A DNA stretch of 64,000 nt from Mesodorylaimus sp. YZB2_4 (lineage: Eukaryota; Nematoda; Enoplea; Dorylaimida; Dorylaimidae), in NCBI GenBank assembly GCA_030248295.1, contig JASANH010001265.1, forward strand, positions 434,001 to 498,000. The letters run 5' to 3'. This document shows positions 4,116-34,821 of the stretch, piece after piece. The first letter of the stretch is position 1; the number at the start of each line of letters is the position of its first letter. Under the pieces are notes generated by a model. It had not been told where the DNA came from, made no database searches, and saw only the letters and a program-made list of their open reading frames with translations. The translations under genes and the position numbers were made by a program.

Positions 4116-5099
4116 ATGTATTTCTCTCACATTGGTATCGGGCTGGTGTTATTTCTACAGCCACTCTTGGCTTGTGCTGAGGAAGCGAATACCGGGGATT
4201 CCAAGTAATGGTTCTGGAGATCTGTTTCTCTTGTTCTTTATGCCCACCAGGACCCCATCGATGCAGTATTAGGAATGTTTGTTAATCGTGTGGGATAAAA
4301 GTCCCGTGTGGGTGATACACGCTTGGCATTCAATAGAGGGGCTCGGGTTTTTGACCAAGGACTGTCTACCATTCCTTAACAACATCAGCATTCTTGTATA
4401 TGAGCAACACCGCAGCCAGTTCTGTACACCCAGCAAGAAATTTATCACTGTCACCAAACTTCTTCTGCCAAGCCTGTATAGCAGTATAGCTGTACCCCGA
4501 ACGTATGAGTTATTTTCTAAAGGCTAAAAATTAAGGCTTCACGTTGGAGCGTTTTGGAGGACTTAGCGGGTAGGCTAAAAAAAAGAATGACGTCAATGTC
4601 ATTGTGATCATATTTTTGAAAAGGCAAAAGCCAAGGGCAATGTTGATGGCTCATCTAACACAAAAAGCTTGGAAAAACATTTCTACAAACTGTAATAATC
4701 GTTTTTGATCAATTATACATATTGCCGAAATTACGGTAGGAGACCATATCCTGAGGTTCCTCCGCATTTATTCTAGTTGGGGGGGGGGGGGGGTTACGGT
4801 AGGAGAGACTGATGGCCACATAAACAAGCGGCTATGTCGGCGAGCTAGGTGCCCCCAAAAAAATCGTGGGCTTTAAATAACCGTCAGCCGAGCCATTTTG
4901 TTTCAGGGGTGGTACTCGAAAATCCATCAAAGTCCTTGGGGCGATGCCGAATCGGAGCTTTGCTCCAGGAGAAGTTCAAAAACGCCAAGAGAAGCAACAG
5001 AAGACCGAGAAGAACAAGAATATACCGCGCATACGCACCAAGGGTGGTATCTTTATCAACTGCTATTTCAGCCCGATTCAGTGCATATTTATTCAATGA
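4116..5099 (+). CDS. Allatostatin C-like prepropeptide, copy 1
   Basis: Two exons: 4116-4204 and 4907-5099, joined across a 702-bp intron (AA|GTAATG ... TTTGTTTCAG|G), giving 93 residues. Exon 1 encodes a signal peptide (MYFSHIGIGLVLFLQPLLAC). Exon 2 holds a charged, Gln/Lys-rich spacer (KRQEKQQKTEKN) and a single C-terminal peptide, GGIFINCYFSPIQC followed by IFIQ. The two cysteines enclose six residues, and CYFSPIQC matches the allatostatin C core CYFNPISC at six of eight positions. Known allatostatin C precursors are secreted, carry one copy at the C-terminus, and act through somatostatin-like GPCRs. The expected disulfide and neuroendocrine role are inferred. A basic site (RTK) precedes the peptide. 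Unlike copies 3 and 4 there is no C-terminal Gly, so no amidation is predicted. Confidence 0.75.
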
Positions 5100-5598
5100 T
5101 TGCTTTCTGGGTCACTAAGAATTAAATGAAGTCCCAGGAAAGTCATGGAGTCATAGCCCCTTGTCAAGACTGTAAGCCCTGCACTGCAACAGTCCTGCAA
5201 CTCTTTTTGCTGGAAGTGCTCAGTAAAGTCGCATTGGTCCTTCATGTCATGGAATTGCGGTTGTGATCGCACTACCGTAATCCTCCATCAACGCATTGAT
5301 AACATCCGGAGTGTCAGCCACGAGAAGCGTTATACAGTATATGCATGTATATCCAATACGATGACAATCAGATAAGAGGCAGGCAACTACACTTACTTAC
5401 AATAGTTTACCCCGTGCGATGAAAACCAGGGGCCTCTCGCTGGAAGAAAAGTGATGTAAATGTCTAGAGAATATAGGGCTGACAAGCATGCGATTCTTGT
5501 CATGACAATTTGTCGAAAGAATAGAGCCCCAAGCATCGACCGATCTGACCCTCAGCCCGGATCCCAATCCCGATCCGTTCCATACTTTGCATCTGCCT

Positions 5599-5627
5599 GA
5601 TCCGATCCGATCCGATCCGATCTGATT
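5599..5627. repeat. GATCC microsatellite
   Basis: Tandem (TCCGA)n ending in a degenerate unit. A related but degenerate GATCCG-rich patch occurs at about 59110-59150. Confidence 0.7.
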
Positions 5628-5887
5628 CTAACTGATCTTAAACCAAAAAATGTAAACAGAATCCTGCACAATCTTGGTTCTTCATTCATTGAGCAAAAAA
5701 ACTCGGAGCTCAGATTGTTTTATATTTCTTAATTTCTACAATAAACGATAGATCTCTTTTCTTTCTTTAGACAAACGAAAGCTTTTTTGGACAAGGAAAA
5801 CCAATTGCTTTCACAGGGCTCCCATCAGCCAGATAGAACAAATTCAAAAGAGGTTATAGAGGGCTTCGAGGCGGGGTGGGAGGAAGG

Positions 5888-5966
5888 TTGGGCCGTCGCC
5901 TAGCGGTTGAGGCGTCTGCCTGTCATGCTAGGTGCCAGCGATGGTTTGACTCCCGCCTGTGTGAAA
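5888..5966 (+). repeat. tRNA-derived SINE-like element (family A)
   Basis: The sequence contains an A-box-like stretch (GCCTAGCGGTTGAGGCGTC) and, about 30 bp on, a B-box-like GGTTTGACTCCCG. It does not close a proper acceptor stem, so it is not a functional tRNA. A second member in opposite orientation lies at 35843-35925. The common stretch is roughly GTCTGCCTGTCA-GC-AGGTG. This fits a tRNA-derived SINE head; the body and tail are not delimited. Confidence 0.55.
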
Positions 5967-6879
5967 ACTTATCAATACATAGTTCTATGTTTCCTAGCCA
6001 TCGAGTGTGATGTGTAGTGCTTGGCTAGGGATAATTACAAAACGACATGACATGAGCTGGCATGGCTTATCCATTTCTCAGATGTATTTAAGCATGTATC
6101 GAAACTAAGTATTTTTATGATCAGTTTTCAAGTTATGTGTAATAATTGATAATTGCAAAGGGAAAGGTTCAAAAAAGCTTTACAGATGAAAAGTGCGCTT
6201 AAATGAGGAAAAAAAGGCTCATTCGCAAAAAACATAAAAATCCTGATCCACGATTGCCCTGATCTTGATCCCAAAAAAATGATCTTGACCTCTTGTTCCT
6301 TATCCATTTCTTAAATTTCCCAACGCAAATGATTTCCCTCTGACCTCGGAAATTCAAGTAAATTTTTATTTTCCCTGAGGAGACTTTTGAGTAAACACTG
6401 TGGATGAAGCTGCTTATTTAAAGCGACACCGCCTGAACAAAGGTTGCAACACAGTGTGATGCTTCGCGCCGATTACTGAGGTATTCGTTGACGAGCGAGA
6501 TCGTAAAAAAACTTCGCGCTGCCCTTAGTACAACGGTTTCAGTACTGCGAACTGTTTTGCGAGCGGTCAAATCAACTACGTAAGCATGAGCTCGGCCACA
6601 AGCCTTCACGTCTTCGCTCGAATGACTTTTAAGGAACTCTAGGCTACGAGTACTACCTAGAAACGAGTTACACTACGAATTTCCTTGGAAAATTCTTCCA
6701 GGGCTCTGTTTGCGTCTGGTAGCCTCCAGTCTCTTGAAATAATTCTATCGAAATAATAGCTCGAGGATAAAATTGGCGGGTCCCAGAAGCTTGGGCAAGA
6801 TAACCAGGAAGCCCATAATTTCTCAATCTTTTTTACCACTCCTGGTCGGTCCAGAGGAAGGTCAATTTTTGGCCCTTTC

Positions 6880-7350
6880 ACCTGCGGGCTAGTGGGACTT
6901 CTTAGTTGACCCTATCTCGCCATCGACTAAGGTCAATGCGGGATGCATTCCCAGCAAGTGTGTGTGAGTCCCTACCTCGCGATGTCGCCGGTTACCCCGT
7001 GGGGCAACCATACCCAGGTCGAGCCCCATACGGGGAGGGGACCCGAATGCAAGAGCCTCCTGCCCCATAAGGTCTCTCCTCGTTTATCGGCCCCGCAGGA
7101 ATGGCGGGTGAGTCACCCTCCGCCAAACGTGCAAGGCGCTGAAGCGCTTGTGTGTCCCACGATCTTAGTGCGCTGAAGCGTTTACGTGAGGAATAAACAG
7201 TGACAGTGAGGCGCAGAGGAAACTTCACTACTTCTCTCGTAGTTTTTCGATCTGCCCCCTACTCTGTCTAAAAATCTGGGAGCCGAACCACGCATCGCTG
7301 CAAGCACTGGGGTGGGGAGGAAGGAACAAAGCCCAAACGCTACTGGTCCG
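6880..7350. other. GC-rich block without identified gene
   Basis: This stretch is clearly more GC-rich than its surroundings and lies in the extra DNA that separates copy 1 from copy 2 of the duplication. Frames of 74-78 codons exist on both strands but show no family motif. An inserted transposon fragment is a reasonable guess only. From 7350 to 7880 nothing is recognised. Confidence 0.3.
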
Positions 7351-9496
7351 CTAACGGTAGGTCACCTCAACCCATACAGTATGAGAGTTGCGCATGGAGA
7401 TTAATCGCGGACCCCTTACAGTACGCGATTTCCGTGACATAGATGTAGATGGCCATAGAATCTGGACAGGTGTAACATGCTTGGGTAGTCTGGCAACCTG
7501 AACACAGTTTGGTCTTGAGCTAACCAAAAAAAGACACTAGGTGCTCGAGCTCTCTAGATGTAGCCTCTTCAGACACCAACTTATGTCATTCTTGACTCAG
7601 GCTGATGCGCACTTTTAATGAGTCATATCTGTTACAGAGTGAAAGAAGCTAAAAAATATATCGATTCAGCTGCGAGCATTCCGAATCGAGCCCAGGATGA
7701 AGGAAAAAGATTTTATTTGCGAAGTGATTTGATTGTTTGCATCTCGATGATCTAACCCGAAAACCCGTCATCAAAACTGTGCACCAAGAACGAGTCACAT
7801 CGTGGGTACGTGCACAAGTTGCCTTAGCTTACTTGAGCATGTAGCTTTTAAGTTTTAAACAGAAACTGGATTGTCGGCAGGGCGTGTATTCTTTAGAGGA
7901 GAAGATATTTCATTATGGGAAATTTCTTGTTTGGGCAGCTCAAGACTGACAGTAAGGCTACAAACCTAGGAGATGAAGACGAGAAGAATCGATTTATGTG
8001 AATCACGTATGCAAATACTGTACGGGTATGTAACTAATGAAAAGCTACGGGATGCTGCGATTTCGTGCTTACATAAAGGAGTTGTCGAAACAGGAATTCA
8101 ACCCTAAACTCGGAACCATTCTATGAATCGCCAGTCATAATACACAAACCAAGATCTGCAGCAGATGTGAGCTTGTAGTTAATTATACTGCCTAAAGTGA
8201 AAATGAACTGTTCTGATGGAATGGCAGGAGACTGCGGAACATTTTTTTCGGTCAAAAATGGCATGAAAAATAACAGTGCTTACGAGATATGAAATGCTTA
8301 GCAAATTCTCGTCTGTTGCGTTAAGCCCCAAACATGAAAGACAGTGAAGATTTTAAGATTTTCATTTTAAGATTTTAAATTAGGTGAAGGAGAAAAAAAA
8401 GAAAAAGAGAAGAAATGTGTCTATTCCAAAAGAAGATTGACGAGGAAAGAAATGAAGCTCATTTACAAAGAAAACTGAATTTGACTTTTTCCTTAAAAAA
8501 CCAAAAAGGCCGGAGAGGTGGGTGGAAGAAGATTATGCTAAAGGACTGAGCGGCGCCCATCGAGTGTCTCCCAAAGAAATTTAGTCGGAAAAATCGAGGA
8601 TCAAAGTTTGCTCAAACTCATAGAACTCATGGAATAAGCAACGCTGATAAGCTAGATACAGTCATTTCCGCGACGAACGTGTGTCGGAAGTGTTGTCTCA
8701 AAATTTTTTGGCTTGAATGAATCCTCGTCTGTACTTCTCCAAGGACTTCTATTTTTATCGCTCCATATGGCCACTCAGCGTGGTCACCTTCGGGTCGAGT
8801 TTACCAGACACCCGGCTGCGTGAAAAAATATTAAGGAAGATCTATACCGCAGCCGTTTTTATAGTCGTGCTCCTCCTCTAGCAAAAATATAATAATTCAT
8901 AGCGTACAGAAACCAGATTCTTTAGCGCTATATACCTTTTTTGCATCTAATTATTTAAAAACCCCGGCTGAAGCTTTGAAATGCAACACTGCAACAGTGA
9001 GGTTAAAACAATAAATGCCCCGAAAATTCTATACGCGCGAATACTCTTCAGACAAAGTTCAGAGCAAATCTCCCACGGGCTGTAAGAGACCATTCAGGTA
9101 TAGTAAATCTACATTAATGATGAATGAGCAGCTCGCTGCACAGTCAGAGCTAATTTTCCCTGTCTTGGATTGAAATCACACTTGACACATTCTGTTGTCC
9201 CAGCCGAATATACCTGACCTGGGGATAAACTAAAAATAATCCTATTAACCAGCGTTTTTATTTACTCACTTACCAAACTAACTCGCATCCCGTTTAAACT
9301 TCAGAAACGACCAGGCTTATGCTTAAGGTTGCTTGCCACCAAGCTGCAACCAAGCTTGCCATAGCATAAGACGACGGTCGGAGTAAGGCGAGCGTAACGT
9401 TTTGACAAATTTTCTGCGAGGTTGTCGCAAATCAACTTTTGCTCGGGGCTGGCAGATGGCATGATGAAGACATAATAAGATGGTTGCAGCTCCGGC

Positions 9497-9530
9497 ACTT
9501 TGAACTTTGAACTTTGAACTTTGAACTTTG
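9497..9530 (+). repeat. (ACTTTGA)n minisatellite
   Basis: Nearly five tandem 7-bp units. The duplicated counterpart near 17130 has only one unit (TACTTTGAAG), so the expansion happened after the duplication. Confidence 0.85.
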
Positions 9531-10133
9531 TCAGCCATACAATCCAGTGCTATATTTTTAAAAAAAGGTTGACTGGCTCAAGCTTTTACGCGCCGTGATC
9601 AATTTTGTCAGAGCCGCCGCTTATCGGATAAACGAAGAAGCTCTGTAGAAGACCTCCGAACTAAACATATTGCTTATCCAGGCGTGCAACGAATGGAATT
9701 GCGGAAGAGTTCGATATGCTGTATGTGATAGATAGAACAGATTATCAAACTTGCTCGAGCATTACCTGATGGAATATACCCCACGCATATATCTAAAAAT
9801 ACATTTCAGAGGTCAGATAAATTTGCCTGCCAATAAAAATTTCACGACAAGATCAAATTAGATCTCCTTTATCTACAAGAGCGAGGCTGAAATATTCGTT
9901 GCTTGAATCTTTCTGTTAACGTACACTGTACAAACCCTGTTAAATAGGTTGTGTGAATTGGTCTGTTAATTATTTTGTCAGTCTCCTGCTGATGCCGTAC
10001 ATGAGCAGAAAACTGCTCTGCCCGAGGCTGTCACTGCACCAGTGTGTAGCCATATTTGAGTGATTTTGATAGGAAATAATTACGCTCTTGATTTTTAAGA
10101 CACGGCCACACCATACCGATTACTTTTTGAATT

Positions 10134-10147
10134 CCCCCCCCCCCCCC
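10134..10147. repeat. C14 homopolymer
   Basis: Run of 14 C near the end of duplication copy 1. Confidence 0.9.
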
Positions 10148-10343
10148 GCCCTTAGCTCGTTGCCGGACCTGCTTACTTAGCATTTATACCCTCATAAGTG
10201 TAGGGCTTTCACAATAAGCGTACATCTAATATAAACGAGTTACACCACTTTACTGGAACGGTTCACTGTACACCACCAGATTTGCCATCGGTCTGACACT
10301 TCCGCATTTTTTGGGGCGAGCTGACCATACAATCTTGCTAAGG

Positions 10344-10381
10344 GCCGAGACATTGACGGGAATGCCCGTCAATGTCTCGGC
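10344..10381. repeat. Perfect 17-bp inverted repeat with 4-nt loop
   Basis: GCCGAGACATTGACGGG is followed by AATG and its exact reverse complement. No ORF or transposon end is evident beside it. It could be a hairpin-forming site, a small non-coding RNA stem, or a fold-back artefact. Confidence 0.85.
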
Positions 10382-11605
10382 AACCAATAATGGGACAATG
10401 AATAACCTATTTTTACAAATTTAGATGAATTAGGAAAATGAATGAACAGAATTTTACAGAACTCTTCAGTCGCACTCGAGATTAATAAAGCGTGATTTAT
10501 TATTCTTGGGAAAATAAGACAGCGTCTGTGGTGTCTTTTCGTTATTAGCCTTATCATAAAGATACTGTACACATCAATGTGTTTTACTTCGAAGGTCTTC
10601 TACAAAACTGTATATGACGCCTTAGCTTGCCTGACTAAAAAGGAATGTCCCGAGGTGTTAGCCCGGAATTGGTATCGCGAAACGTTTTTGTAACAATAGA
10701 ACACATTTTTGAGAATGTTTGCATTTGATATGCAGTCAGTTCTTACTCTGATGCCTTGGGTAAAGCTTGTTGGTCTGCGCTTCAGGATGAGAGGGAACGT
10801 TTGAAATTGACTCAGTTTTATAAATTTTCCCACAGTACTGTTGATTTTGGAAATGCCCGCCTCGTTCACATACAGTATCTGATTTTCCTGTTAGCGCTCG
10901 TACCTGCGAAGCCCATCACCTGGTTGTCCTCAGGCATTTTACTTAGTCTTATAAGCAAAGCTTTATATGTTCCTCCACGCTTTTATGGAATGCTGCGCCT
11001 TCTGAGACGGTTCTTGGAAGTTTCCCACGTTTTTTTTTTTAAATGACATTTGGGTTATGATTTGGGCTATGCATTTTTATGCTTATTTTTTTGTCCTGTG
11101 TCTCTCGCTCCTAGAGTGCATGTATTTGCTTTATGAAGACTAGGTGAATACTCCAGCGTGGGTTAATCAGTGGAGCCTGTCTCTGACTCCAAAAGTTATG
11201 CAAGGTGTCTTCATTATTTGGATTTGTCAAGCCTTGCTAAAGACTAGAGTAAACAGACTTGTCGCTTTGAGACACACTTGGATTTGCAAATTATTTGTCC
11301 ACTATTGTGGGTAATTCGAAGGAATTCTGTTTTTTTAAGGATCACTAGGGAATAACAAAAGATCAAAATTCGGGTGCGTAAAAAAAGGAATCCTCATTGA
11401 AATATTTTCACATAGTCATCTTTACAGCAAAGTCACCATATGTACGGAGGAGTTGCGCGGTTTCTTCCTAAAGGAACTTCAGCTGCCGCTAAAAAATTCG
11501 GGTCAACCGGACCCGAAATTTCAGGTCAGGGACTTTCGGGTCGGGTCGATCGCGATTTGACCGACGGGTCGGCCCGTCGGCTTCAACCCGATTTGATCCG
11601 GTGTC
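10382..11605. other. Unassigned sequence
   Basis: No supported gene. The last part (about 11500-11605) is rich in CGGGT-type repeats and abuts the retrotransposon remnant. Confidence 0.35.
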
Positions 11606-12995
11606 TAGTGGAGTTCGCGCGGCGCAAGCACGACGAGCGGACATCGATGCTAGCGACTGAACCATTGGCACGGCCTTGTGTTGTGTTTTGGGTGAATTCA
11701 TTTTTCGCACCAGGTTTCTGTCTGTCCGCTGCTTACGGTTCTCTTTCTAGTTGGAATGACGATGTTTGGTCCTGAGTGCTCTGTTTCCACCCTAATCGTT
11801 TTGCAAACTCCTCGTTTTGTGCTTTGTTCTCGTGATGAGTTTTCGGTGGCGGTGTCAGGAACGGTGGCATCGATTCGGTTCTCCTGGACTACGCCTGGGA
11901 GGCGAATCGAGTATTGGTCCGGGTCGTCTGGGCCGAGCTTCGTTGGTCAGCCGCTTATCACATAGAGCCGTTGAGGGAGCCAGTGGAATGAGCTCATTCT
12001 ATACCGCCTGTGGTGGGCCCAGCCGAGAATGATGTGGACCCGAGGTATCCAGAATTTCGGGAGCAGCCGGTGGAGGGTGATAGGCTTTCTCAGCGGGAGA
12101 AGGCTTTGTTGCGGTAGTCTCGTCAGTTCTACTGGTCCCTAGCCATACGCACTCTGCGGGAGTTTGATGACTCGAGGCTCTCTGTGGGGCGACTTCGAGT
12201 CTTCGAGCACTCTTATTACTGAACGTTTGGGCAGCCTGTCGATTTTGGGAGGCGAAGTTGTTTGTTTCTCGCTTTGATATTTTGTCTCAACGATTCTTGG
12301 CCTGGTCTGACGTGTAGCCATTCCGCGCTTAGTCCAAAGTCGGCTGCGGAAACATGAATATCAATCGCTGTCGGATCAGGATAGGCGTCTCAGGCACCGA
12401 CGGATGGATCACTAAAGTTGCTCGAGCACGTCGAAGTCCGTTCTTGCTCGTCTTTGGAAACAGTGATAATGTGGAAACGTCCTCGACGGGCGAGCGACGT
12501 CTCCTGTTATGACTACGCTTGGTAGGAGACGGGAAGAGTCAATTTTTCAATCGATTGGGTCCTCATGTCAGGGATGGCTCGCAGAGCGTAGCCCACAGCT
12601 ACGTAGTCCCGCACTCGACCACAGTCTCGATCCAGCCCTCAAGCCCAGGTTTCGCCCACGCCCTACCCTCTACCAAGCTACGATCGCCTCCGCTCATCAA
12701 GACCACAGTCGCCCTATTCGAGTCGGACCTTTCCTTGTGCCAATCATCATCGAAGTCATCGGCCCCAGCGTGTTGAGTGACTTGTGGTGATTTGTTTATT
12801 TGTTTTCTTTCTTTCTTTTTATGCGTCAAACGAGGACGTGCGATAATTTGGTGAGAAGGTGAGGTATTGATAACCTGATTTCAGATATGTTTCGGTGTCT
12901 TGTCTTGTGTGCCTAGATGTGGACTAACTAGGCGTCCTTGTCCTTGTCCTTGGGTTGCCGTCTAGTAAAGTTGCTTGGCGCGTGGCGGATGAACA
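11606..12995 (+). pseudogene. Decayed 3' end of a Ty3/gypsy element (pol end, ORF3 and LTR)
   Basis: From about 11606 the DNA matches, base by base over long stretches, the minus-strand element at 24.6-32.2 kb. It has the end of integrase (GGAGTTCGC.GC..CGCAAGCACG, then TGA), the non-coding spacer, ORF3 (DEFSVAVSGTVASI near 11838), and an LTR ending ...CGTGGCGGATGAACA at 12995. ORF3 here carries stops and frameshifts (TAA near 12219, TAG near 12117). The matching terminal ...TGAACA in both elements fixes the outer LTR edge. The 5' part (gag, most of pol) is missing. This copy shows that ORF3 belongs to the element family and is not a local accident. Confidence 0.9.
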
Positions 12996-14036: not shown

Positions 14037-14959
14037 ATGTATCTCTCATATGGTATCGGACTGGCCTTATTGCTACAGCCATTTTTGGCTCGCGCGGCGA
14101 GCGAAAATACTGCAGACCCCAAGTAATATCTATAGGTTTTTTTTCATGGCATCCATCAATCGTATACATTAGAAATCAAGGATTAGTGACAAGTTATTAT
14201 CAGTTAGGGATTAGGTTGGTTAAGGGACTGTTTGCTTGGGATAAAAGTCACATCTGACAATGGTCTCTTTTATGAGTAACGCTGATGCAGAGGTTTGGCG
14301 CATAACCGAGGGAGTTAAGGTTTTTAGACGGTTAATAAACCTTTGACTGGGTTACGACACTTCGAGGTTCATGGTACAGTAGTCTCGACCAAGAGCAGAT
14401 ATAAGTAAAAGTCTTAACCTTACTGCACTTTCTAGCAGACATAAGTTTCATGTTAGAAACGCTCACAAACAAAAATCTTGCTGGATATCACAAAAGTTGT
14501 CAGTGCATTAGGCATGTTTAAATCGACAAAAGCTAATGGAGATGTTGCTGACTGTGCAGCAACTAGCAAATAACTCGTGCAGAACCCCAGTAATGGTCTA
14601 TGATCAACTACGACAGGCTCAAAGCAGAAGGGTGAGGATGTGGAGAGACAGGGGGTCACATGACACAAGCGCCTATGTGATGTACAATCGGCTAATTTTG
14701 GTGCTCTGACGCTGACTGGGCTCTAGCTATCTATGTACTAGCCGTGCCATTTTGCTTCAGGACTGGTACTCGAAAACTCTTCAAATTCCTTGAGGCGATG
14801 CCAAGTCGGAGCACTGTTCCAGGGGTCTTTCAAAAACGCCAAGAGAAGCAACAGAAGACCGAGAAGAACAAGAATATGCCTCGCATACGCACTAAAGGCG
14901 GTATCTTCATCAACTGCTATTTCAGCCCTGTTCAGTGCATAACGTTATTTTTCAAGTGA
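14037..14959 (+). CDS. Allatostatin C-like prepropeptide, copy 2
   Basis: Exons 14037-14122 and 14761-14959 with a 638-bp intron (AA|GTAATA ... TTTTGCTTCAG|G), 94 residues. Signal peptide MYLSYGIGLALLLQPFLARA. The spacer again contains KRQEKQQKTEKN, and the C-terminal peptide is GGIFINCYFSPVQC followed by ITLFFK. It is the closest paralogue of copy 1 in intron length, intron position and spacer. The single Ile-to-Val change within the ring is conservative; the tail after the second Cys differs and lacks an amidation Gly. A secreted allatostatin C / somatostatin-type ligand is inferred from the CYFSPVQC ring and precursor layout. TATTAA near 13984 may be a weakened TATA box. Confidence 0.75.
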
Positions 14960-15443: not shown

Positions 15444-15458
15444 CCCCCCCCCCCCCCC
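15444..15458. repeat. C15 homopolymer
   Basis: Run of 15 C in copy 2 of the duplication, downstream of peptide gene 2. Confidence 0.9.
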
Positions 15459-18514: not shown

Positions 18515-18662
18515 TCATCCGACATACCCGTACAAGCACTGGATAGGGCTAAAAGAAATTCCTAAGCCTTTCCTACGCATCACCGGGGTTGCTTCCGACA
18601 GCACGTGCCGAACATGGCTGCAACAACGAAAACACTCCGACTCCGAGACATGAAAGATGCAT
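18515..18662 (-). pseudogene. Inverted, internally deleted allatostatin C-like copy (copy 6)
   Basis: On the minus strand, an ATG at 18662 opens a signal-peptide exon MHLSCLGVGVFSLLQPCSAR, clearly akin to copy 4 (LGIGVLLMLQPCLARA). After about 23 codons it meets a stop (GCG TAG). Only some 25 bp farther comes sequence matching the very end of exon 2: AGCCCTATCCAGTGCTTGTA then TATGTCGGATGA, ending at 18515. The intron, spacer and first cysteine codon are gone, so no ring peptide can be made. The promoter region is also present in inverted form (18690-18810), but the TATA box has become TGTAAAA. Confidence 0.85.
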
Positions 18663-21564: not shown

Positions 21565-21912
21565 ATGGATCTCAAATGCATCGGTTTCGGATGGCTTTTG
21601 CTGCTACAGCCATGCTTGGCGGAGAGCGAGGGAAAAAATGTTGGTGATATCAAGTAATGATGCTGGATGTTCTGCCTCTCTGCCCTGACGCGTATTGGTT
21701 TCAGGATCGGCGTTTCCACAGGCAGTCCAATAAGTCCAAGTTGGGCGTCGGTCGATGCTGGCGTCAAGCCTGTGGTGAATGCTCAAAGACGCCAAGATGG
21801 AGAAATCTTTGGACTAAAGGGCAAGAATAAACTTCTGGCGCGCCTTCGGAGCAGAAATGGCATCTTTATCAATTGCTATTTCAGCCCGGTTCAGTGCATG
21901 TATGTCGGATAA
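21565..21912 (+). CDS. Allatostatin C-like prepropeptide, copy 3
   Basis: Exons 21565-21653 and 21705-21912 with a 51-bp intron (AA|GTAATG ... GGTTTCAG|G), 98 residues. Signal peptide MDLKCIGFGWLLLLQPCLAE. The spacer (KPVVNAQRRQDGEIF...) differs from copies 1 and 2. The C-terminus reads RLRSR|NGIFINCYFSPVQC then MYVG and stop. A basic cleavage site precedes the peptide and the final Gly could be converted to an amide, giving a C-terminal MYV-NH2. The GG of other copies is NG here. The short intron, promoter and YVG ending group it with copy 4. Function as an allatostatin C-type secreted ligand is inferred from the Cys ring CYFSPVQC and precursor architecture. Confidence 0.78.
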
Positions 21913-23090: not shown

Positions 23091-23099
23091 GCCTCGCCG

Positions 23100-24640: not shown

Positions 24641-24646
24641 GTAGTA

Positions 24647-24806
24647 TGTTCACCCGCCACGCGCCAAGCGACTTTACTAGACGGCGACCCGGGACAAGAC
24701 TACTTAGTTAGTCCACATCGGCACACACTACGAGACCAGACACAAAAGGTTGAAGGGCATGATTAGAACCAGTTATGAGTAAACATCACGTTATCACTAC
24801 ATCACA
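24647..24806 (-). repeat. 3' LTR (about 160 bp, TGT...ACA)
   Basis: On the minus strand it starts TGTGATGTAGTGATAACG after GGTGAGGG, a possible polypurine tract, and ends GGCGGGTGAACA. The end is supported by the copy at 12995; the start is chosen from the TG dinucleotide and is less sure. Such a short LTR is unusual but known in some Ty3/gypsy lineages. Confidence 0.65.
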
Positions 24807-24910
24807 CCCTCACCAAATTCTCACACGTCCCCGTGTGACGCAAAAAAAAAGAAACGAGAAAGGAAAAAAAAACAAACAAATCACCATAAGTCACGATTGG
24901 ACCGATGACG

Positions 24911-25909: not shown

Positions 25910-26044
25910 TTAGGGTGGAAACAGGGCCCTCACAACCAAACATCGTAATTCAGACTAGAAAGAAAAAAACGTTAGCAGTGGACAGACAGAAACCCGGTGC
26001 AAAACAAATAGACACAAAACAGAACGCAAGACCATGCCACTGGT

Positions 26045-29000
26045 TCAGTCGCTTGCATCAATGTCCGCTCGACGTGCTTGCGCTGCGGCGAACTCCTCCA
26101 ACTGAGCCATGGCTGTGCGAATCGCCTTTTTCTGAGAAGCATGCATCGCCTTTGTCTCGAAATATGGCTCGATGTCTTTCAGGTGCACAAAAGCCTGGCG
26201 ATCACGATCATTGAAAAAAAAAACTAATATCCAAGGACCCTTTGTACGCGGTTTTGGACCTTTGGCTTCCGACTCTGGCAGTACACGAGCAGGCCACCAA
26301 GGAATATATTTGAGTTTAGCCCACACCAAAGAGCCAGGTACTAATTGCGAAGTCTGCCCACCGGGCGTGATATTCGGGTCGTGACTCTTCGATTCCTCGA
26401 TTTCCACCCACTGATCGTTCTCAGATTCTGGATCGTCCTCCGGACGTCCTGACACTGACCCCCGATATAGTTGCAAGTGATTCACGTGAATGAGCTTGTC
26501 AGCGCCAGCCCAAAGCAACGGACGAATGCATGCGGTCACTTGCGATGGCATTGCGACAATACGATATGGACCCGAAAAACGATCACATAGTTTGGCAGAC
26601 AAACGTCGTGGTGCTGCATTCCTCCTAAGCATGACCAATGAACCGACTTTAAAAGGAATTTGGTGGGCTGCTCTGTTATACTGTTTAGCCTGCTGTTCCT
26701 GAGCTGCGGAAATCGATTTGCGCACTTCGGTGTAAGCATCGGCTAAACGCTTTTTCAACTGCACTACATAGTCGCGGGCTAAATATTGCTGTGAGTCATC
26801 CGAACCAAAGGCGCGATCGAATGGAAACGGCAAGTCACGGCCATAGACCAGTGAGGCTGGTGAGTAACCCGTGGATGAGTGCACACTCGAGCGAAAGGCA
26901 AATAAGGCAAACGGAATGAATAAGTCCCAATCTTCCTGATGAGCACTTGCGTAGACTGCAATGCTGTCGATCAAAACCTTGTTATACCGTTCGACTTGTC
27001 CATCGCACTGTGGGTGATATGCTGTAGTGGATAACTTGCGGATGTCCAGAAAGCGACAAATACCACGAAACAGATCGGATGTGAATTGAGACCCCAAATC
27101 AGACAATACTGTACGCGGGCATCCAAAGCGACAAATAATATGCTCCACGAAAATCTGTGCGATGGTTTCAGTCCTGCAATCAGGCATTGCGACTGCTTCC
27201 GGCCACTTTGTGAATGCATCGATAAGCACTAAGATGTACTGATTGCCAGCGCGTGTAGTTGTCATTGGTCCAACGATATCCAAACTGATACGTTCGAATG
27301 GATTACCCACTGGGATCGAAACCAAAGGTGCTTTCCCCCACTTATGCGGTGACTTACGACGAGCACAAATCAAACAAGTACGGCAGTAGTTGTGCACATC
27401 CTTACGCATCGATGGCCAATAGACACGGTCCATAAGACGAGTCAAGGTGCGTTCTTCTCCCATGTGACCCGCCAGAGGATCGTTGTGAAATGCTGCCAAG
27501 ACTTCCTGCTTCAGACTGGACGGTAAGGCAAGAATTGAGCTTGTGATACCACGAGATTTGCGACGGCGCGGAAAGCAAAACCGAAGAACTGAGCCCTTAT
27601 CTCCCTGCAGAAAGTATGACTCTGCCAACTTCGCCAGTTCCTCTCTCTCCCCCTCAACGCAGGCACCAGCCTCCACAAAATCGATAATACGCTTCAAAAA
27701 TAGATCTTCTTCTTGCTCTCTTCGCAGCACTGTATCATCCAAGAATGCCAATTCGTCCTCCGCCACGCACTCTTCCCCGTCCTCTCCGACAGATATACCC
27801 GAATCTATAGGTGCCAGCGTTGCGTGGGTGGTACCCGAGATCATGCGAACCATGCGTGAAGAAGGCTCCACAGTAGGAAGGCGAGACAGTGCGTCTGCGT
27901 GACCCTGAGCTGTACCAGGACGATAAAGGACTTGGAAATCATAGCCTTGCAACTGCTCAATAAATCTGCCCCAGCGATGGCTATCCTCAATCTCCTTGGT
28001 CGTATGCCACGCCGTCAATGCTCGATGATCAGTGAAAACCAAGAAAGGGCGCCCATACAGATAAGTTCGAAATTTCTTGATACCAAAGAGCACAGCCAAT
28101 GCTTCTCTGTCGGTAGTGCTGTGGTTCCTCTCCGCCGGAGTCAATGTTCGTGAGGCGTACGCGATCACCCACCGGGTGTTTGGTTCTCCAGGTTGGTACT
28201 GTTCTAAAATGGCACCTAACCCAACTCCGGACGCATCAGTGCTCAATGCAAATGGAAGCTCGAAATTCGGAAAGCGAAGGATTGGCTCAGAAAGTAGAAT
28301 ATCACGCAAGGCCACAAATGCCGAGGCACAGTCCTCAGTCCACACGAAAGGCACACCCTTCTTGGTCAGTTGATACAGCGGAGCGGCGACCACAGAAAAC
28401 CCTTTGATAAACCGACGATAATGATTGACTAAACCCAAGAAAGACGAAACGTCGCCAGGTGACTTCGGTACTGCCATATCACGCAATGGTGCCGTGGTCT
28501 CTGGGTCAGGGCGAATCCCAAGCTTTGAAACGATGTGACCCAAAAATGGTACTTCAGCCTGCGCAAAACTGCACTTGCTTGGTTTGAGTTTCAGGTTGGC
28601 ACCACGAAGACGGTTAAAGACTACTTGCAGATCTTCAAAATGTTGTGCTACCGACTGAGAGAATATGATGAGGTCGTCCAAATAAGCCAATATTTGACGC
28701 CAACTCAACCCCGCCAAGAGAAAGTCAACAGCCCGGGCAAATGTTGCTGGTGCATTAGATAAGCCAAATGGCATTCGTGTCCACTCGTACAAGCCATCTT
28801 CGCAGATGAACGCGGTCTTCTCGCGTGACTTTGGATCCAATGGTATCTGCCAATAACCTGACTGCATGTCACAAACACTGAAAATGACGCTGCCTTGCAA
28901 CTTGTTCAAAAGAGTCTCAATGTGAGGTAGCGGGAAAACGTCCTTCTTGGTGACGGCGTTCAACCAGCGATAATCCACGCAGAAACGCCAGGAGCCATCA

Positions 29001-29070
29001 GCTTTCTTGACTAGAAGAGTCGGGGACGCCCACGGACTGCAAGAGTGAGTCAAGACACCATTCTTGAGGG
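26045..29070 (-). CDS. pol: Ty3/gypsy pol: reverse transcriptase, RNase H, integrase and PWWP-like domain
   Basis: In order on the minus strand: RT with GYWQIPLDP and the active-site YLDD (near 28670); RNase H with LSTDASGVGLGAIL and FTDHRAL; the integrase HHCC finger (HNDPLAGHMG...CRTCLICARRK, about 27350-27490); the catalytic core with LDIVGPM, SDLGSQF and DGQVERYNK; and the GPY/F-like module (GSLVMLRR, GPYRIVAM). The last roughly 65 residues (26159-26344) read GSLVWAKLKYIPWWPARV ... VFFFNDRDRQAFVHLKDIEP, the pattern of a PWWP chromatin-reader domain, in the place where chromoviruses carry a chromodomain. The reading frame is open to the stop at 26045. The frame upstream of about 29072 is offset by one base relative to the protease part, so a complete product is not encoded as read. 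Confidence 0.9.
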
Positions 29071-29072
29071 CC

Positions 29073-30725
29073 TTCTTCAACTTGACGACGTAGTTCCTCT
29101 TGTTTGGCCTGCGGAACCCGGTATGGCTGTCGTTTGACTGGTGCAGCATCTCCTGTGTCAATGTAATGATGGACGCCTGGCATACACCCCAAATCCTTAT
29201 CCGACTCAGCAAAGATGTCTGCGTTTTGACACATCAAGTCCACGAAGGCTGCTTGCTCTTCATCTGTTAGACATGCTGTAGAAATGTTAAACTTTGAACG
29301 CAATCTCTCCACGCGCGCCGGGTCTTGCTTAGCTGGCGGAGGAATAGATTTCAGTGGTTCCTTAAAGCGATCCAAGAGCTCCTTGTAGTGACGCGCAGTG
29401 GTGTCGTCGATCGAGTCGCTGACTTGTAACGAGTCGATTCCAGTCAGACCTACGCTCAACTGCGACCCAGCCACTGCACACTGAGCCTCATGCCCCAAAC
29501 GTGACCGAATATGGGCAGCCAATGACTTCGGCGCCAAACTAACGCCCTCATCCCTCACCGAGGGTTCTCCTTCGATATACTGAGACTGTTCAAGCGTGCC
29601 ACATGGTATGTGATCGGAGAGTGCTAACTCATTCTCTCCAAAATTGACCAAGCACACTGGAAAACGCTGAGCCTCATTCAATTTGACCAAACTCGCGGGG
29701 GCAGCTACATGAAACTGCTTTTGAAAATCGGATGAGGGTATGAAAACCATCAAATCCTTATTCGGACTCTCCGCCTGTGCCCAGAACAATTTCTGACTTC
29801 GGGGTGGAACGACCAAGGACTCAGATGGACCACGGATCAGACGAACATTAGCCTTAGCCCGACAAAGCTCTCGTTGGAAAAACGAAACCATAGTACCGCA
29901 AAACGGATCACGCATCAGACGAATCGACTTGGCGCAATACGATATATCGGCTCCAAACACGTGAAGAAAATCTGATCCAAGAATGCAACCCCGATACGTG
30001 CCACCCATAACATGCATGGGCCATTCCACTGTGATGCCTCTCACTGTGACTCCGACCAAGGCGATTCCCAACAAAGGCACGTCGTCTCCACTAGCTGCCT
30101 TACAACTCCAAATACCCTTGTACAATGTGATCGGTGTGTTTCCCTGGCGCAATGAATCAATATGGATCAAAGATATCTCAGCTCCAGAATCAACCAAGGC
30201 TACAACCTCAACGCCATTCACTAAGATCGACAATTCTGGACCAGAAACCAAACGAGCCAATGATCCTGGTGACTCCGCGTATGTTACATTGTAGGTGTGC
30301 GATATGACTGTCTGAACCAACGAAGGTGAGACTCGTGAAGTATGCGGAGGAGTCAACACCCCTGAGCACATGCTCAAGTGCGAAGGCATCGCTGACCCAG
30401 CGTTAGGCCCTATCGCACACGAGGACGGTTGCTGATAACCACTTTGACCTGGCATGGGCGGCGCGGTAGGGTGGGCATACGGCGGTTGCTGATACATCGG
30501 CTGTGGATATTGCGGATGATAGGATGGCTGCTGCGGATGGGTAGGCTGGTGTGATGAAGCACCATACGATGACTGCTGTAGATTTCCTGTGTTCTGACGA
30601 TTGCCTGACGCGCGAGGACATGTCTTCCTGCCATGGCCAAACACATTGCAGACTGGGCAAGGTTGTCGAGATGGACATTGATCAATCGTGTGATTAGGCT
30701 GCTTGCAATACTTGCATCCCCCCAG
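29073..30725 (-). CDS. pol: Ty3/gypsy pol: zinc knuckles, Pro/Gln linker and aspartic protease
   Basis: The frame opens after a TAG at 30726-30728 and begins with two CCHC knuckles (CKYCKQPNHTIDQC, CPVCNVFGHGRKTC). A Gln/Pro/Tyr-rich linker of about 80 residues follows, then a retroviral-type aspartic protease with LVDSGAEISLI (Asp codon near 30190) and the flap/second-half motif CILGSDFL. The frame runs into the start of RT (KRQPYRVPQAKQEELRRQ) and is then broken near 29069-29075, where one extra G in a GGCC context puts the rest of RT in the next frame. It overlaps the end of gag by about 32 bp in another frame. Confidence 0.85.
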
Positions 30726-32223
30726 CTAGAGCGACTCGACGCGGACAATCACGCTGCAAATGATCGCCATTGCAGATAAAGCAGCGTTTGACCATTTCAG
30801 TGTGTCGAGGTGACTGAGAAGAATGCCCTTTACCTACAAATGCCCCAACTTGAGCGGGTGGATTATATGAAGGTGGCCAGATCGGCTTCGATGCAGAGGG
30901 AGCGTTCTTCAAATATGATTCCCAATGTCGAGCAGACTTGATCAATTCGTCCAACGTACAATTATCGCCCATTCGATCCTGAGCTACCTTATCTGCTATC
31001 TCCGCTCGTAGGTTCACGCGCATCGTATCACGAATCATCTTATCCCGTGCAGGGGATGGAACATCAGGGTACGCCTTTGACGCGAGTGTTTGAAGCTGGG
31101 ACGCGAATTCCTGAACCGATTCTGTTACACCTTGCTTCCTATTACGAAAAGCGTCCACCCGTGTCTGCTCTGTGTCTTCCCGAATATACAACCGACGCAA
31201 GCGAGTGCGAACCACGAGCCAAGTTGACCGCTCACTATGTGGCCACTCCGAGAAATCGATCAATGGTTGACCCCGCAAGTACAGATACAAACCGCGGACA
31301 CGATCGTCGTCGGACCAATCCATCATGATCGCGCCATTCTCATAGGCCACCAACCACGCGCGGAAGTCCTGTGTCGGTAAATTCTCGAATGGAGGGACCT
31401 CTGGCTTGATTGGACGAAACGGTCTTGGCGCCACAGGTGCTGCGACGGACCGAGATGATAATGCCGCGCCCTCCGGGCGTGAATGCACTACTTCAGGCTG
31501 GAGAGCGGGACGACTGTCTGAGAATGGCATTAGATGGACGTGTTCCCTGTTATTCGACAAACGACTACTGCACGAATCAGCATCCTGCCGTTGTGCTAAG
31601 CGAGCCTCCAACTCCCGAATCTTTCCTTCCAGTTCCTGCTGCCTGCAGTGAGCGAGATGCAACTCATTCAGATGACGAATGTTTTCTTCGATTGAGGGAC
31701 GAAGCTGCTCTGCGTCACGACGAGTGATCGGCGGTGTATCACGCAACGGATTACGATTCTGAGGTATCTGGGACCGCGCATCTGGGACAGGATCACCTTC
31801 CAGAGTAGACAAATCGAACTGAGCTGACCCTCGATCACCGCGATTAGGTTGTGTACTACGGCCACCGTTCAAGTCGCGCGCTGACTGCTGCGAAGTAGGG
31901 ACGCCTACACCCGCGGGAGATGTAGCCTGCGAGGGGGGATCCGTATACAGAATAGGAAATCTACACCCGTCCAAAAATGCATCGTCAACAGGAGAGTTCG
32001 GGTTGAGCTGCTTCAACTGAATGCGAAAATACGCGCGAATACGACAGATAAGCTCATCGCGCCCCACGCGTGACTGATCCAACAGATTGTCCATCGAAAT
32101 GTCTTTATGCAGACAGAAATTCACCAGGTACCGCAAAGGCAGGTCACTCAGATCCCGAAGAGCATACTCCCGTGCCAAGTCAACACCATCAGGACCAATA
32201 ACCACATTCGACTGGTCCGCCAC
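30694..32223 (-). CDS. gag: Ty3/gypsy gag (capsid/nucleocapsid)
   Basis: An open frame of about 509 codons. The N-terminal half has a coiled-coil-like stretch (HLNELHLAHCRQQELEGKIR). The capsid-like region contains FRAWLVAYENGAIMM, the retrotransposon-gag pattern WLVVRTRLRRLYI and VQEFASQLQTLASKA, and it ends with one zinc knuckle CFICNGDHLQRDC. This knuckle has three residues between the second Cys and His instead of four. The frame ends seven codons after GGM at 30694. No ATG occurs before codon 44 (32094); the codon at 32223 is GTG and an in-frame TAG lies near 32258, so the authentic start is unclear and may have been lost with the 5' LTR. Confidence 0.85.
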   Translation of the reverse strand: MADQSNVVIGPDGVDLAREYALRDLSDLPLRYLVNFCLHKDISMDNLLDQSRVGRDELICRIRAYFRIQLKQLNPNSPVDDAFLDGCRFPILYTDPPSQATSPAGVGVPTSQQSARDLNGGRSTQPNRGDRGSAQFDLSTLEGDPVPDARSQIPQNRNPLRDTPPITRRDAEQLRPSIEENIRHLNELHLAHCRQQELEGKIRELEARLAQRQDADSCSSRLSNNREHVHLMPFSDSRPALQPEVVHSRPEGAALSSRSVAAPVAPRPFRPIKPEVPPFENLPTQDFRAWLVAYENGAIMMDWSDDDRVRGLYLYLRGQPLIDFSEWPHSERSTWLVVRTRLRRLYIREDTEQTRVDAFRNRKQGVTESVQEFASQLQTLASKAYPDVPSPARDKMIRDTMRVNLRAEIADKVAQDRMGDNCTLDELIKSARHWESYLKNAPSASKPIWPPSYNPPAQVGAFVGKGHSSQSPRHTEMVKRCFICNGDHLQRDCPRRVALAGGMQVLQAA

Positions 32224-32262
32224 CTCCTGATATCTGTGCTAACCCTCTGACACGTAGCATTT

Positions 32263-32785
32263 CAAACTAATGTGCTAATAAAAGGCGGAGGCGTGATTAC
32301 TTTAACTAATCAGAAATGCATGGATGATATTTGAAACTGGGGCTAACGTCTCGCCTGCGTTAGTTCACAGAGAGCATCTATCAATCACACAAATCTGATT
32401 TTCTGGAGACTGAGCATGTCCTGACACAAAACCCACGCAACTGTCTTTTTTCTATGATGTAATTGCGACCTTGCAGAATAAAAATTATCTTTCGTAATTT
32501 TATTTGATAACGATCTTGGATTGCTGCACCCAAGTTATGTCTAAATTATACGCCGAACCAAGATCATTTGCACGTTCTCGACAACTGACACTTACGTCAG
32601 TTATCTCGTGCGCAGTCTCATGCCTGGCCGCCACGTGCTGCTTTAGCCGAGGCAAGACACCTAGTTAGCCGATGATAGATACGGATATACATATATTACT
32701 GAGACCACAGAAATGGCAGAAGCAAATAAACTTCGCTCATTGGGGTATAATTTAGAGACGGTGCTTGGTGCAGAACGAATACGAG
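32263..32785. other. Region between gag and peptide gene 4
   Basis: No gene and no LTR matching 24647-24806 is visible. From about 32650 it corresponds, in inverted form, to 18690-18850 and belongs to the upstream region of peptide gene 4. Confidence 0.5.
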
Positions 32786-32822
32786 TATAAAACGCTGTCT
32801 CCTCAAGCAGATTCGTCAGTCT
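32786..32822 (+). promoter_or_regulatory. TATA box and TCAGT initiator of peptide gene 4
   Basis: TATAAAA at 32786-32792, TCAGT with A at 32818: again a 32-bp spacing as in copy 3, with the same TTCGTCAGT/TCCGTCAGT context. The start codon is 37 bp downstream of the predicted +1. Confidence 0.75.
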
Positions 32823-32854
32823 GCGAGTGTGCGGTCAGCGAATCAAGCGAGAAG

Positions 32855-33228
32855 ATGCGTCTATTATTCCTCGGAATCGGAGTGCTCTTGATGTTGCAGC
32901 CATGTTTGGCCCGTGCTGTTGAAAGGAATGTTGGAGATACTGACAATAAGTACGCATGCCTCCATACTTTGACTCCTGAAGGCTGCCTTTTTGTTTCAGG
33001 GATGGTCTCCAAGACCCATCGTCTGGCGATGTGTTATTACCGACTCGAGTAGAATTGCTGCAAGAAAACATGGTTGCGGTGAGTGCTCTCAAGCGTAAGG
33101 AGAAACAACAAAAGACCGACAAGGCTAACAGTAAGCCGAAGACTAAGCTGCTGACTCGCGTCCGCAGCAGGGGTGGGATCTTCATCAATTGCTACTTCAG
33201 CCCTATTCAGTGCTTGTATGTCGGATGA
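32855..33228 (+). CDS. Allatostatin C-like prepropeptide, copy 4
   Basis: Exons 32855-32949 and 33000-33228 with a 50-bp intron (AA|GTACGC ... TTTGTTTCAG|G), 107 residues, the longest copy. Signal peptide MRLLFLGIGVLLMLQPCLARA. The spacer contains a KRKEKQQKTDKANSKPKTK stretch. The product peptide RSR|GGIFINCYFSPIQC is followed by LYVG and stop, so cleavage after Arg and amidation at Gly are both possible. The ring CYFSPIQC is the allatostatin C type (two Cys, six residues between, CYFxPIxC). TATA and initiator upstream and AATAAA-like signals near 33367 fit an expressed gene. Its promoter and exon 1 also occur inverted at 18.5-18.8 kb and, decayed, at 34.4 kb. Confidence 0.8.
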
Positions 33229-33429
33229 ACTCGTTTGCTAGCGGAAATGCTGGGCCTTTTCGAGGCCTGAAGAGTTAGTCTGGGCTTGATAGGGTTCTGT
33301 GCGCTAAACCTGTATCAGTTTTCTGTGCAAAGTACTGAACCATTGTCTAATACAGAAGACTGAAAATAAAAGAAGGACTAAGAACAAGACTGCACACTCA
33401 TATGGATTTGCCTGTTTGTCGGTTTTTGC

Positions 33430-34370
33430 ATGCACAAGATGAATAAGAGGTTTGTTCATTTTGTAACGAGGAAAATTTTGTCCGCGGATTTGGTTCCAGC
33501 GAAGAACGCGGAAGGCCCTTCAACACGGCATACGTCCAGCATTGCTTGTCGCAATTGCGTCAGTGCATGTTCCCGACAGTCATGGTGACAGGATGTGCCA
33601 GACAGTGCATGACCAGTGACAGAAATAAATACGACATGACGCAGGTAAGCAGACGCTTGATAATGGTGTGTGATTGAAGGAAAAAGCCGGACACCTGGCA
33701 ACCGCATGCTTCGTGATAACTTGCAACATCGAGAATCAAGAGGCGCCAGCGCTACTCACTGAAGAAGTCGTCCTTTGATCTACTGTGATTGCTAAAGCCC
33801 ATCAGCACCATTACGTATTTTCGTGCAAGTCAAAATAGGAATGATAGCCCGCGCCTTCTGTCACCCACTAACTGTCCTTTAAGCGGGGCCAATTTGGGCA
33901 TTGGATTAGCGGTCATCACCAAGTTTATTGCTGTACTCACTTACCTTGCCCTAGTAGCTCATGCTCAAGTGGAGTATCAGGGAAAAGCCAGGCCTTATTG
34001 TAATTTTGCAGCAATGCACGACAATAAAAAATTGTTCAAGAATGTTTTGCATATGGTATGCCCCTCTGTAATGAGGAAATGTAAGTGAGAGCTGAGTGTC
34101 GATGTGCATTGTTCCAAGTGTTAGTGCTGTAATTTTTATAGAGCGCTCACGAGAAGGCACTCCCGGACAGGAGCGCCTGCGTCTTCAGAGTGCCCTAAAT
34201 CAACTCCGGGTTGCATTATGGAAGGATATGTTATGGCCATATTGCGACGATCGATAAGCGGCGATGTTTATCGAGATATGATAACCCAAAGGTAAGAATA
34301 CGTGTGAATTGGGGCAAAGCTTAACACATATCTCGACAACGGACGTTTGTATCATTGATGACGTGAACAT
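33430..34370. other. Unassigned, includes duplicated 3' flank
   Basis: The part 33540-33690 matches 35030-35170 (shared GTGCATGTTCCCGACAG, AATAAATACGAC and TTGATAATGGTGTG). The flank was therefore duplicated together with peptide genes 4 and 5. No gene is supported. Confidence 0.6.
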
Positions 34371-34821
34371 ATGTCCGCCTTCACCTCTGTACTTCACACC
34401 TGTTTTTGCTGTTGCAGCCATGTTCGGCTCGGGCTGTCGAAAGGAATGTCGACGATACTATGTATGCTTTGACTCGTATAAAACTCACTCTTGAAGTAAC
34501 ATAGCTTTTTGTTTCATGAGCGATCTTCGAAGACCAATATCTGTTCAGTTACTACCGCCAACTTGAAGTAGAATGACTCGAGCATCCATGCTCGCGGTGA
34601 GTGCTCACAAACGTCAGGAGAAACAACGGAAGAACAACAAGGACAAGGCTAACGATAAGCTGAAGAGCAAGCTTCTGACAAGTGTGCGCAGCCGAGGCTG
34701 TGTCTTCATCAATTGCTATTTTACCCCTATTCAGTGCTTATACTGTATGTCGGATGATCTCTCACGTGAATGTAGCCCTTGTCGAGGTCCTGCCTGCCCT
34801 CAGTTTTGCGATTTAAACTAA
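34371..34821 (+). pseudogene. Decaying allatostatin C-like copy (copy 5)
   Basis: The order of parts is as in copy 4 but several are broken. From the ATG at 34371 to the CAG of LQP there are 47 instead of 45 bases, so the signal peptide is out of frame with the part that still reads LLLQPCSARAVERNVDD. The intron donor is missing. The acceptor TTTCAGG has become TTTCATG. The spacer (KRQEKQ-like) and ring region remain (FINCYFTPIQC, with Gly-Gly changed to Gly-Cys), and a 4-bp insertion after CLY removes the YVG ending and extends the frame to 34821. No good TATA box is seen. A functional product is unlikely. Confidence 0.8.

What the first reader, a model, noticed from the sequence alone, without database searches (positions are those of the whole stretch)
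4116..34821. A cluster of allatostatin C-like neuropeptide genes: four intact, two broken
Seen: four two-exon genes, each with a signal peptide, a basic spacer and one C-terminal peptide with the ring CYFSP(I/V)QC, all with the intron at the same place and phase (AA|GT, after two bases of a codon). Known: allatostatin C peptides have CYFNPISC-type rings, and insects usually have only a few related genes (C, CC, CCC). Inference: a lineage-specific expansion of this hormone family by local duplication, which I have not seen described.
Basis: partly seen in the sequence, partly recalled or inferred. Interest (0 to 1): 0.9.

Follow-up and report, generated by a model that had tools for sequence, protein, structure and literature searches.

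The report
Giant nematode allatostatin-C-like peptide family
The window holds four intact and two broken members of a family of about ninety small secreted-peptide loci in what is most likely a dorylaimid nematode, nearly all ending in the same eight-residue ring, which looks like the hormone allatostatin C/somatostatin; so many genes for one hormone-like ring would be very unusual.

Summary
In detail: four intact two-exon genes (signal peptide, phase-2 intron, one C-terminal CYFSP(I/V)QC ring) and two broken copies. The genome is a nematode, most likely Dorylaimida: its COI is nearest to Xiphinema/Longidorus. The family is genome-wide: 113 candidate places on 61 contigs, 94 ring loci read, 89 distinct at 95% identity. 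Pro-regions diverge widely while the ring barely changes (omega 0.44 against 0.05, 17 pairs), so these look like working genes whose product is the ring. Signal-peptide exon models pass a threshold in 42/54 loci against 0/162 shuffled controls, 39 of the 42 in phase 2. The common rings share 5-6 of 8 residues with insect AstC (recalled) and 5 of 8 with C. elegans NLP-99. The phase-0 intron typical of SS/AstC genes is missing; a smaller CYFSPVSC group in the same genome has it in the one gene readable. At least four somatostatin-receptor-type GPCRs exist. Best reading: a huge lineage-specific set of AstC-like cyclic peptides for few receptors. Expression, processing and action are unproven.

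The parts
4116..4204 (+). Gene 1 exon 1: signal peptide (MYFSHIGIGLVLFLQPLLACAEEANTGDS-)
   Evidence: phase-2 donor AA|GTAATG
4907..5099 (+). Gene 1 exon 2: basic pro-region and ring peptide, stop 5097-5099; ring CYFSPIQC 5061-5084
14037..14122 (+). Gene 2 exon 1: signal peptide
14761..14959 (+). Gene 2 exon 2; ring CYFSPVQC 14915-14938, tail ITLFFK
   Evidence: 88% DNA identity with gene 1 exon 2 over 178 bases
18515..18662 (-). Broken copy A: exon-1 remnant 18662-18579 running into a stop, scrap of exon 2 at 18553-18515
21565..21653 (+). Gene 3 exon 1: signal peptide
21705..21912 (+). Gene 3 exon 2; ring CYFSPVQC 21874-21897, tail MYVG; intron 51 bp
32855..32949 (+). Gene 4 exon 1: signal peptide
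33000..33228 (+). Gene 4 exon 2; ring CYFSPIQC 33190-33213, tail LYVG; intron 50 bp
34406..34757 (+). Broken copy B: exon-1 remnant without start, exon 2 with a stop in the pro-region, ring CYFTPIQC 34714-34737 and a run-on tail

Best explanation
The genes are members of a very large, lineage-specific family of secreted cyclic peptides of the allatostatin-C/somatostatin (NLP-99) kind in a nematode, most likely a dorylaimid. Shown from sequence: a signal-peptide-like exon 1; a phase-2 intron in most models; a fast-diverging basic pro-region; one C-terminal [FY]x-N-C-[YF]-F-[ST]-P-[IV]-Q-C peptide under strong purifying selection; 89 distinct loci read, in tandem groups and singly; a second, smaller group with the ring CYFSPVSC, of which the one complete gene model has the canonical phase-0 intron; at least four somatostatin-receptor-type GPCRs. 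Inferred: the precursor enters the secretory pathway, is cut at basic residues before the ring, the two Cys close an eight-residue ring, and the peptide acts on this small set of receptors in the worm itself. On this reading duplication multiplied where and when the signal is released, not the signal, much as nematodes carry many insulin-like peptides for one insulin receptor (recalled).
For: Family size and reality. Signal-peptide exon and intron phase against shuffled controls. Ring omega 0.049 against pro-region 0.435 at similar dS, 17 non-overlapping pairs. Ring likeness: 6/8 and 5/8 to AstC CYFNPISC (recalled) for CYFSPIQC and CYFSPVQC, 5/8 each to NLP-99 (NLP-99 sequence and its exon layout from PMC13082328 passages). 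SC-type gene with phase-0 intron. SSTR-type receptors. At least one basic residue within 8 aa before the ring motif in 68 of 68 modelled precursors.
Against: The QC genes lack the phase-0 intron that PMC7536072 calls conserved in SS/AstC genes; 45 of 52 models are phase 2. No protein of the big collection, Pfam family or PDB chain matched the precursors tried (one, two and one of them). The ring is short, so homology to AstC cannot be shown by sequence alone; the third common ring, CFFTPIQC, shares only 4/8 with NLP-99. KR/RR sites are missing in 13 of 68 precursors, and in 46 of the other 55 the nearest lies 18-52 residues before the ring motif, so the mature N-terminus is unknown. Three of the four window genes score 6.5-7.6, under the threshold of 8; their models rest on likeness to each other. 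No expression data. The loci outnumber the SSTR-type receptors found by about 22 to 1, though only 8 of 106 receptor rows were read.
Confidence: 0.65

Rival explanations
1. Exported mimic: the peptides are made in pharyngeal glands and delivered by the stylet into prey or host, where the ring acts on somatostatin/AstC-type receptors. Many near-identical ligands would raise dose or give redundancy.
For: About 22 loci per SSTR-type receptor found (the receptor number is a lower bound). Secreted, single cyclic product. Dorylaimids feed by stylet (recalled).
Against: No gland expression data. Exported weapons usually diversify the mature part (recalled), whereas here the ring is the part that does not change. 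GH12, reported from Xiphinema and Longidorus (PMC5664137, passages), gave no match here, so a plant-parasitic lifestyle is not supported.
Confidence: 0.14
2. Convergent ring: an independent nematode secreted-peptide family (signalling or antimicrobial) that reached CYFSPIQC without descent from AstC and uses another receptor.
For: Phase-2 rather than phase-0 intron. No match to any known family for the precursors tried. Basic stretch, 26% K+R in the 25 residues before the ring motif.
Against: The SC-type group in the same genome differs from CYFSPVQC by one residue of eight and has the phase-0 intron in the one gene readable. The FXP motif and ring size fit AstC. Hyper-conserved rings are not typical of antimicrobial families (recalled).
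Confidence: 0.18
3. Mostly dead repeats: copies spread with transposable DNA and are not working genes.
For: Retroelements lie in the window, one of them between genes 3 and 4. Two of the six copies in the window are broken. 4 of 94 loci have fewer than 25 open codons before the ring. 3 of 86 and 5 of 93 search rows have a stop inside the match.
Against: 84 of 89 distinct loci have at least 40 open codons before the ring. Ring omega is 0.049. Splice and signal-peptide structure passes the threshold in 42 of 54 against 0 of 162 controls.
Confidence: 0.03

Closest known systems
C. elegans NLP-99 / receptor NPR-16 (somatostatin/AstC ortholog; PMC13082328, passages)
   Same: Signal sequence in the first exon, cyclic peptide in the second, 6 residues between the Cys, F-S-P in the ring (CEFSPLSC)
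   Different: One specific ligand-receptor pair in C. elegans, against 89 distinct QC-type loci here; ring residues 2, 6 and 7 and the tail differ
Insect allatostatin C / CC / CCC (sequences and numbers recalled)
   Same: Eight-residue ring C-Y-F-x-P-I-x-C; local duplicates
   Different: Few genes in arthropods; Asn at ring position 4 and Ser at 7; ends right after C-F; phase-0 first intron (Drosophila, PMC7536072 passages)
SC-type genes of this same genome (L008, L136)
   Same: CYFSPVSC ring near the C-terminus; secreted two-exon precursor (L008)
   Different: Phase-0 intron, Ser not Gln at ring position 7, HC not NC at the first Cys, tail GVGRG/TVARG; 7-8 places, not about 90
Nematode insulin-like peptide family (recalled)
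   Same: Large ligand family facing very few receptors
   Different: Unrelated fold and receptor class

Membership tests
SS/AstC-type peptide genes | Secreted precursor with a C-terminal ring peptide | tested here: met
   signal peptides judged by a hydrophobicity rule, not by a dedicated predictor
SS/AstC-type peptide genes | Cys pair with 6 residues between (protostome AstC; PMC7536072 passages) | tested here: met
   94 of 94 loci, but fixed by the search pattern, so a selection criterion rather than an independent result
SS/AstC-type peptide genes | FXP motif in the ring | tested here: met
   91 of 94 rings have F-x-P; the exceptions are FRNCYFSAVQC, YINCFFTSIQC and YLNCFFTTIQC (ring list). 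The F was fixed by the pattern; the P was not
[quoted passage not shown]
   QC-type: 45 of 52 models phase 2, 4 phase 0, 3 phase 1; all four window genes phase 2. SC-type L008: phase 0
SS/AstC-type peptide genes | Sequence or profile match to known members | tested here: inconclusive
   No hit in protein collection, Pfam or PDB for the precursors tried; short-peptide searches have low power
SS/AstC-type peptide genes | Activates an SSTR/AstC-R/NPR-16-type receptor | not testable with these tools
   Receptors of that type are present
SS/AstC-type peptide genes | Disulfide between the two Cys | not testable with these tools
   -
Insect AST-C/CC/CCC | Carried by an arthropod genome | tested here: not met
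   COI nearest named hits Xiphinema, Paralongidorus and Longidorus at 82-84%; K2P nearest Trichinella and Trichuris

The most novel reading that the evidence does not exclude
This is among the largest sets of genes for a single neuropeptide-like ring in any animal (comparison from recall): 89 distinct loci read, plausibly more than 100 in all, keeping the product constant while the rest changes. It splits into a canonical AstC group (phase-0 intron, SC ring) and a derived, exploded QC group with its own gene structure. The boldest form not excluded is that the QC group is exported as a somatostatin/AstC mimic against prey or host.
Probability: 0.45. Interest if true: 0.88.

Novelty: new variant of a known kind. 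Interest (0 to 1): 0.73.

Why it matters
Neuropeptide systems usually have one or a few ligand genes per receptor (recalled). Here about 90 loci encode one ring against a handful of receptors of the expected type. That makes it testable whether selection can multiply release sites of a hormone without changing the hormone, and whether stylet-feeding nematodes export it. It also supplies AstC-like peptides for a poorly sampled nematode clade, with a clear gene-structure contrast (phase 0 against phase 2) for tracing their origin.

Tried and rejected
Insect or other arthropod genome: rejected by COI and K2P searches. Tardigrade: a CAHS query gave no match, though that search had no positive control. 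Mermithid parasite, so hormone mimicry in insects: COI is closest to Dorylaimida, and the two mermithid assemblies described in PMC10989877 are 524 and 322 Mb against 145 Mb here. Plant-parasitic longidorid: GH12 gave no match (2 of its 14 control genomes did), weak evidence. Haplotig inflation: 5 pairs reach 95% identity over most of their length; counting each as one leaves 89. Intron-phase artefact: my first modelling script favoured phase 2, so I repeated it without that bonus and with shuffled controls; the precursors still come. SC-type count: the pattern gave 16 sites against 19 in its control, so the number means nothing by itself; the evidence is that 7 of the 16 spell exactly CYFSPVSC and one CNFSPVSC (translated by eye), and that the two which I read (L008, L136) have similar flanks. 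Tree of 68 precursors: few columns, long branches, deep forks unresolved; used only for the statement that the C45 genes fall in a weakly supported group of 12 rows with genes of C1, C34 and C74. Selection test: 17 pairs were taken greedily at 55% protein identity or more and pro-region dS under 1.5; one pair has pro-region dS 0. Pfam and PDB searches of precursors: nothing.
Full report
Observation. I re-derived the genes from the raw sequence. Genes 1-4 splice at GT..AG to open frames of 93, 94, 98 and 107 aa, all with a phase-2 intron. The first two have long introns (702 and 638 bp), the other two very short ones (51 and 50 bp).

Organism. A K2P channel in the window is nearest to Trichinella and Trichuris at 44-48% identity, then to other nematodes. 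A COI frame in the same assembly, read with code 5, is nearest among named hits to Xiphinema rivesi (84%), Paralongidorus (83%), X. pachtaicum (83%) and Longidorus (82%); unnamed contigs reach 86-87%. The genome (145 Mb, 1067 contigs) is therefore most likely a dorylaimid nematode. Glycoside hydrolase family 12, which PMC5664137 (passages) reports from Xiphinema and Longidorus, gave no match here, which leans weakly towards a species that is not a plant parasite. The COI lies inside a 488-kb contig and fragments lie on 14 other contigs, so it may be a nuclear copy.

Family size. Exon-2 protein searches of the whole genome gave 86 and 93 rows; 3 and 5 of these have a stop inside the match. The degenerate 27-base ring pattern gave 166 sites at up to 3 mismatches against 18 for the reversed pattern; of the 100 listed, 85 match exactly. 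Merging the listed places of these three searches gives 113 places on 61 contigs; 64 lie within 50 kb of another. Letters for 14 places could not be fetched. In what I hold, 94 distinct loci carry the ring pattern with 6 or more of 11 positions as in FINCYFSPIQC. Collapsing pairs at 95% identity leaves 89; 84 of these have at least 40 open codons before the ring.

Gene structure. With a scoring that favours no phase, 52 of 54 loci with enough upstream sequence receive a signal-peptide exon model; 45 are phase 2, 4 phase 0, 3 phase 1. In 162 shuffled controls only 56 receive a model and the phases are even (19/19/18). At a score of 8 or more: 42 of 54 (39 of them phase 2) against 0 of 162. Against this, three of the four window genes score under 8 (genes 1, 2 and 3: 6.8, 6.5 and 7.6), in genes 1 and 2 partly because long introns were penalised; their models rest on likeness to each other. 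Signal peptides were judged by hydrophobicity, not by a dedicated predictor. Exon 1 ends soon after the signal peptide; exon 2 holds the basic pro-region and the ring.

Selection. In 17 non-overlapping close pairs, pro-region dS is 0.62 and dN 0.27 (omega 0.435), while the ring has dS 0.73 and dN 0.036 (omega 0.049). One of the 17 pairs (L039/L041) includes the broken copy B of the window. Over an alignment of 33 of the 38 exon-2 sequences, the only invariant columns are N, C, F, P, Q and C of the ring. The ring is what selection sees. That is the pattern expected of a peptide hormone with a conserved receptor rather than of a defence or venom family with a diversifying product (the contrast is recalled).

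What it works like. The consensus ring C-[YF]-F-[ST]-P-[IV]-Q-C has 6 residues between the Cys and the FXP motif, both named as features of protostome AstC in PMC7536072 (passages). C. elegans NLP-99, the somatostatin/AstC ortholog, is GDGYGWNDCEFSPLSCLL with a C9-C16 disulfide, signal sequence in the first exon and peptide in the second, acting on the Gi/o receptor NPR-16 (PMC13082328, passages). CYFSPIQC and CYFSPVQC share 5 of 8 residues with it, and 6 and 5 of 8 with insect AstC (AstC recalled); CFFTPIQC shares 4 and 5.

Is it a member? One defining feature fails. SS/AstC genes share a phase-0 intron in the N-terminal part (PMC7536072); the QC genes here mostly have phase 2. The same passages say that the Drosophila and C. 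elegans genes have a second, phase-2 intron further on, so loss of the first intron is one way to derive the QC structure; this is untested. The same genome also has a smaller group: 7 places spelling CYFSPVSC and one CNFSPVSC among 16 pattern sites, whose total is not above the control of 19. The one full gene that I could read, L008, has a phase-0 intron and ends SKLAAQIHCYFSPVSCGVGRG; a second, L136, ends VAAKLHCYFSPVSCTVARG. I therefore call the SC genes the likely canonical AstC/NLP-99 genes of this worm, and the QC genes an AstC-like group, probably derived, not filed as AstC proper.

Receptors. A somatostatin-receptor query gave 106 rows. I fetched fragments of 8 and compared 4 of these with the PDB. 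L128 (C57) and L132 (C53) match somatostatin receptors best; L127 matches neuropeptide Y receptor 2, and L129 opioid and galanin receptors. L130 (C145) is 66% identical to L128, and L133 (C132) is closely similar to L132 by eye. So at least four SSTR-type receptors exist; the true number is open because most rows were not read.

Mechanism and rivals. Most likely the worm secretes many nearly identical cyclic peptides from different cells onto few receptors. Whether the copies are expressed, and where, is not known. Export to prey or host is a rival that I cannot exclude. Convergence to an AstC-like ring is a second rival, strengthened by the intron phase and weakened by the SC group. After rechecking the controls I moved the best reading from 0.66 to 0.65, convergence from 0.17 to 0.18 and dead repeats from 0.02 to 0.03, because three window genes fall under the model threshold, the third common ring fits NLP-99 less well, and some search rows hold stops.

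Literature. Searches for 'CYFSP' strings, AstC in mites, tardigrades, Ecdysozoa and nematodes, NLP-99 and expansions of neuropeptide genes (20 of 82 papers listed) listed no paper whose title or shown abstract reports such an expansion; one search listed 20 of 24. The library holds only openly licensed papers. Of papers opened, I saw passages of PMC13082328, PMC11603191 (also outline and one section), PMC10989877, PMC9881375, PMC7536072 and PMC5664137; in PMC3890508 the terms searched for do not occur. No whole text was read. A study of tardigrade neuropeptides that reports AstC duplications is recalled, not seen.

Noticed in passing
window 26045-32238 (-): Gypsy-type retroelement between genes 3 and 4; its pol frame (26048-29233) carries a PWWP domain after the integrase (Pfam PF00855, E 8e-15), an unusual chromatin-reading module for such an element (recalled).
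   Followed up: partly
window 50421-62219 (-): A reverse-transcriptase frame (50.4-52.0 kb) and host genes: arrestin (52.5-53.2 kb), K2P channel (55.2-56.2 kb), carboxylesterase family pieces (59.4-62.2 kb; the piece at 59.4 kb is under Pfam's cut-off).
   Followed up: partly
window 37531-37860 (-): Ligand-binding domain piece of a Cys-loop receptor.
   Followed up: no
G000 C73:251439-254674 and 14 other contigs: 21 COI-like rows, most with TGA codons inside, many in large contigs: nuclear copies of mitochondrial DNA or misassembly; the one at C73:253352 is nearly full length.
   Followed up: partly
window 21506 and about 32786: TATA-like boxes (TATAAAA) about 60-70 bases before the start codons of genes 3 and 4 (gene 3; gene 4 by eye).
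   Followed up: no
L004, L070, L072, L079, L091, L112, L113, L119: A subset with longer tails after the ring (often C-W or C-A) and often R or K two residues before the first Cys; may be an older layer of the family.
   Followed up: partly
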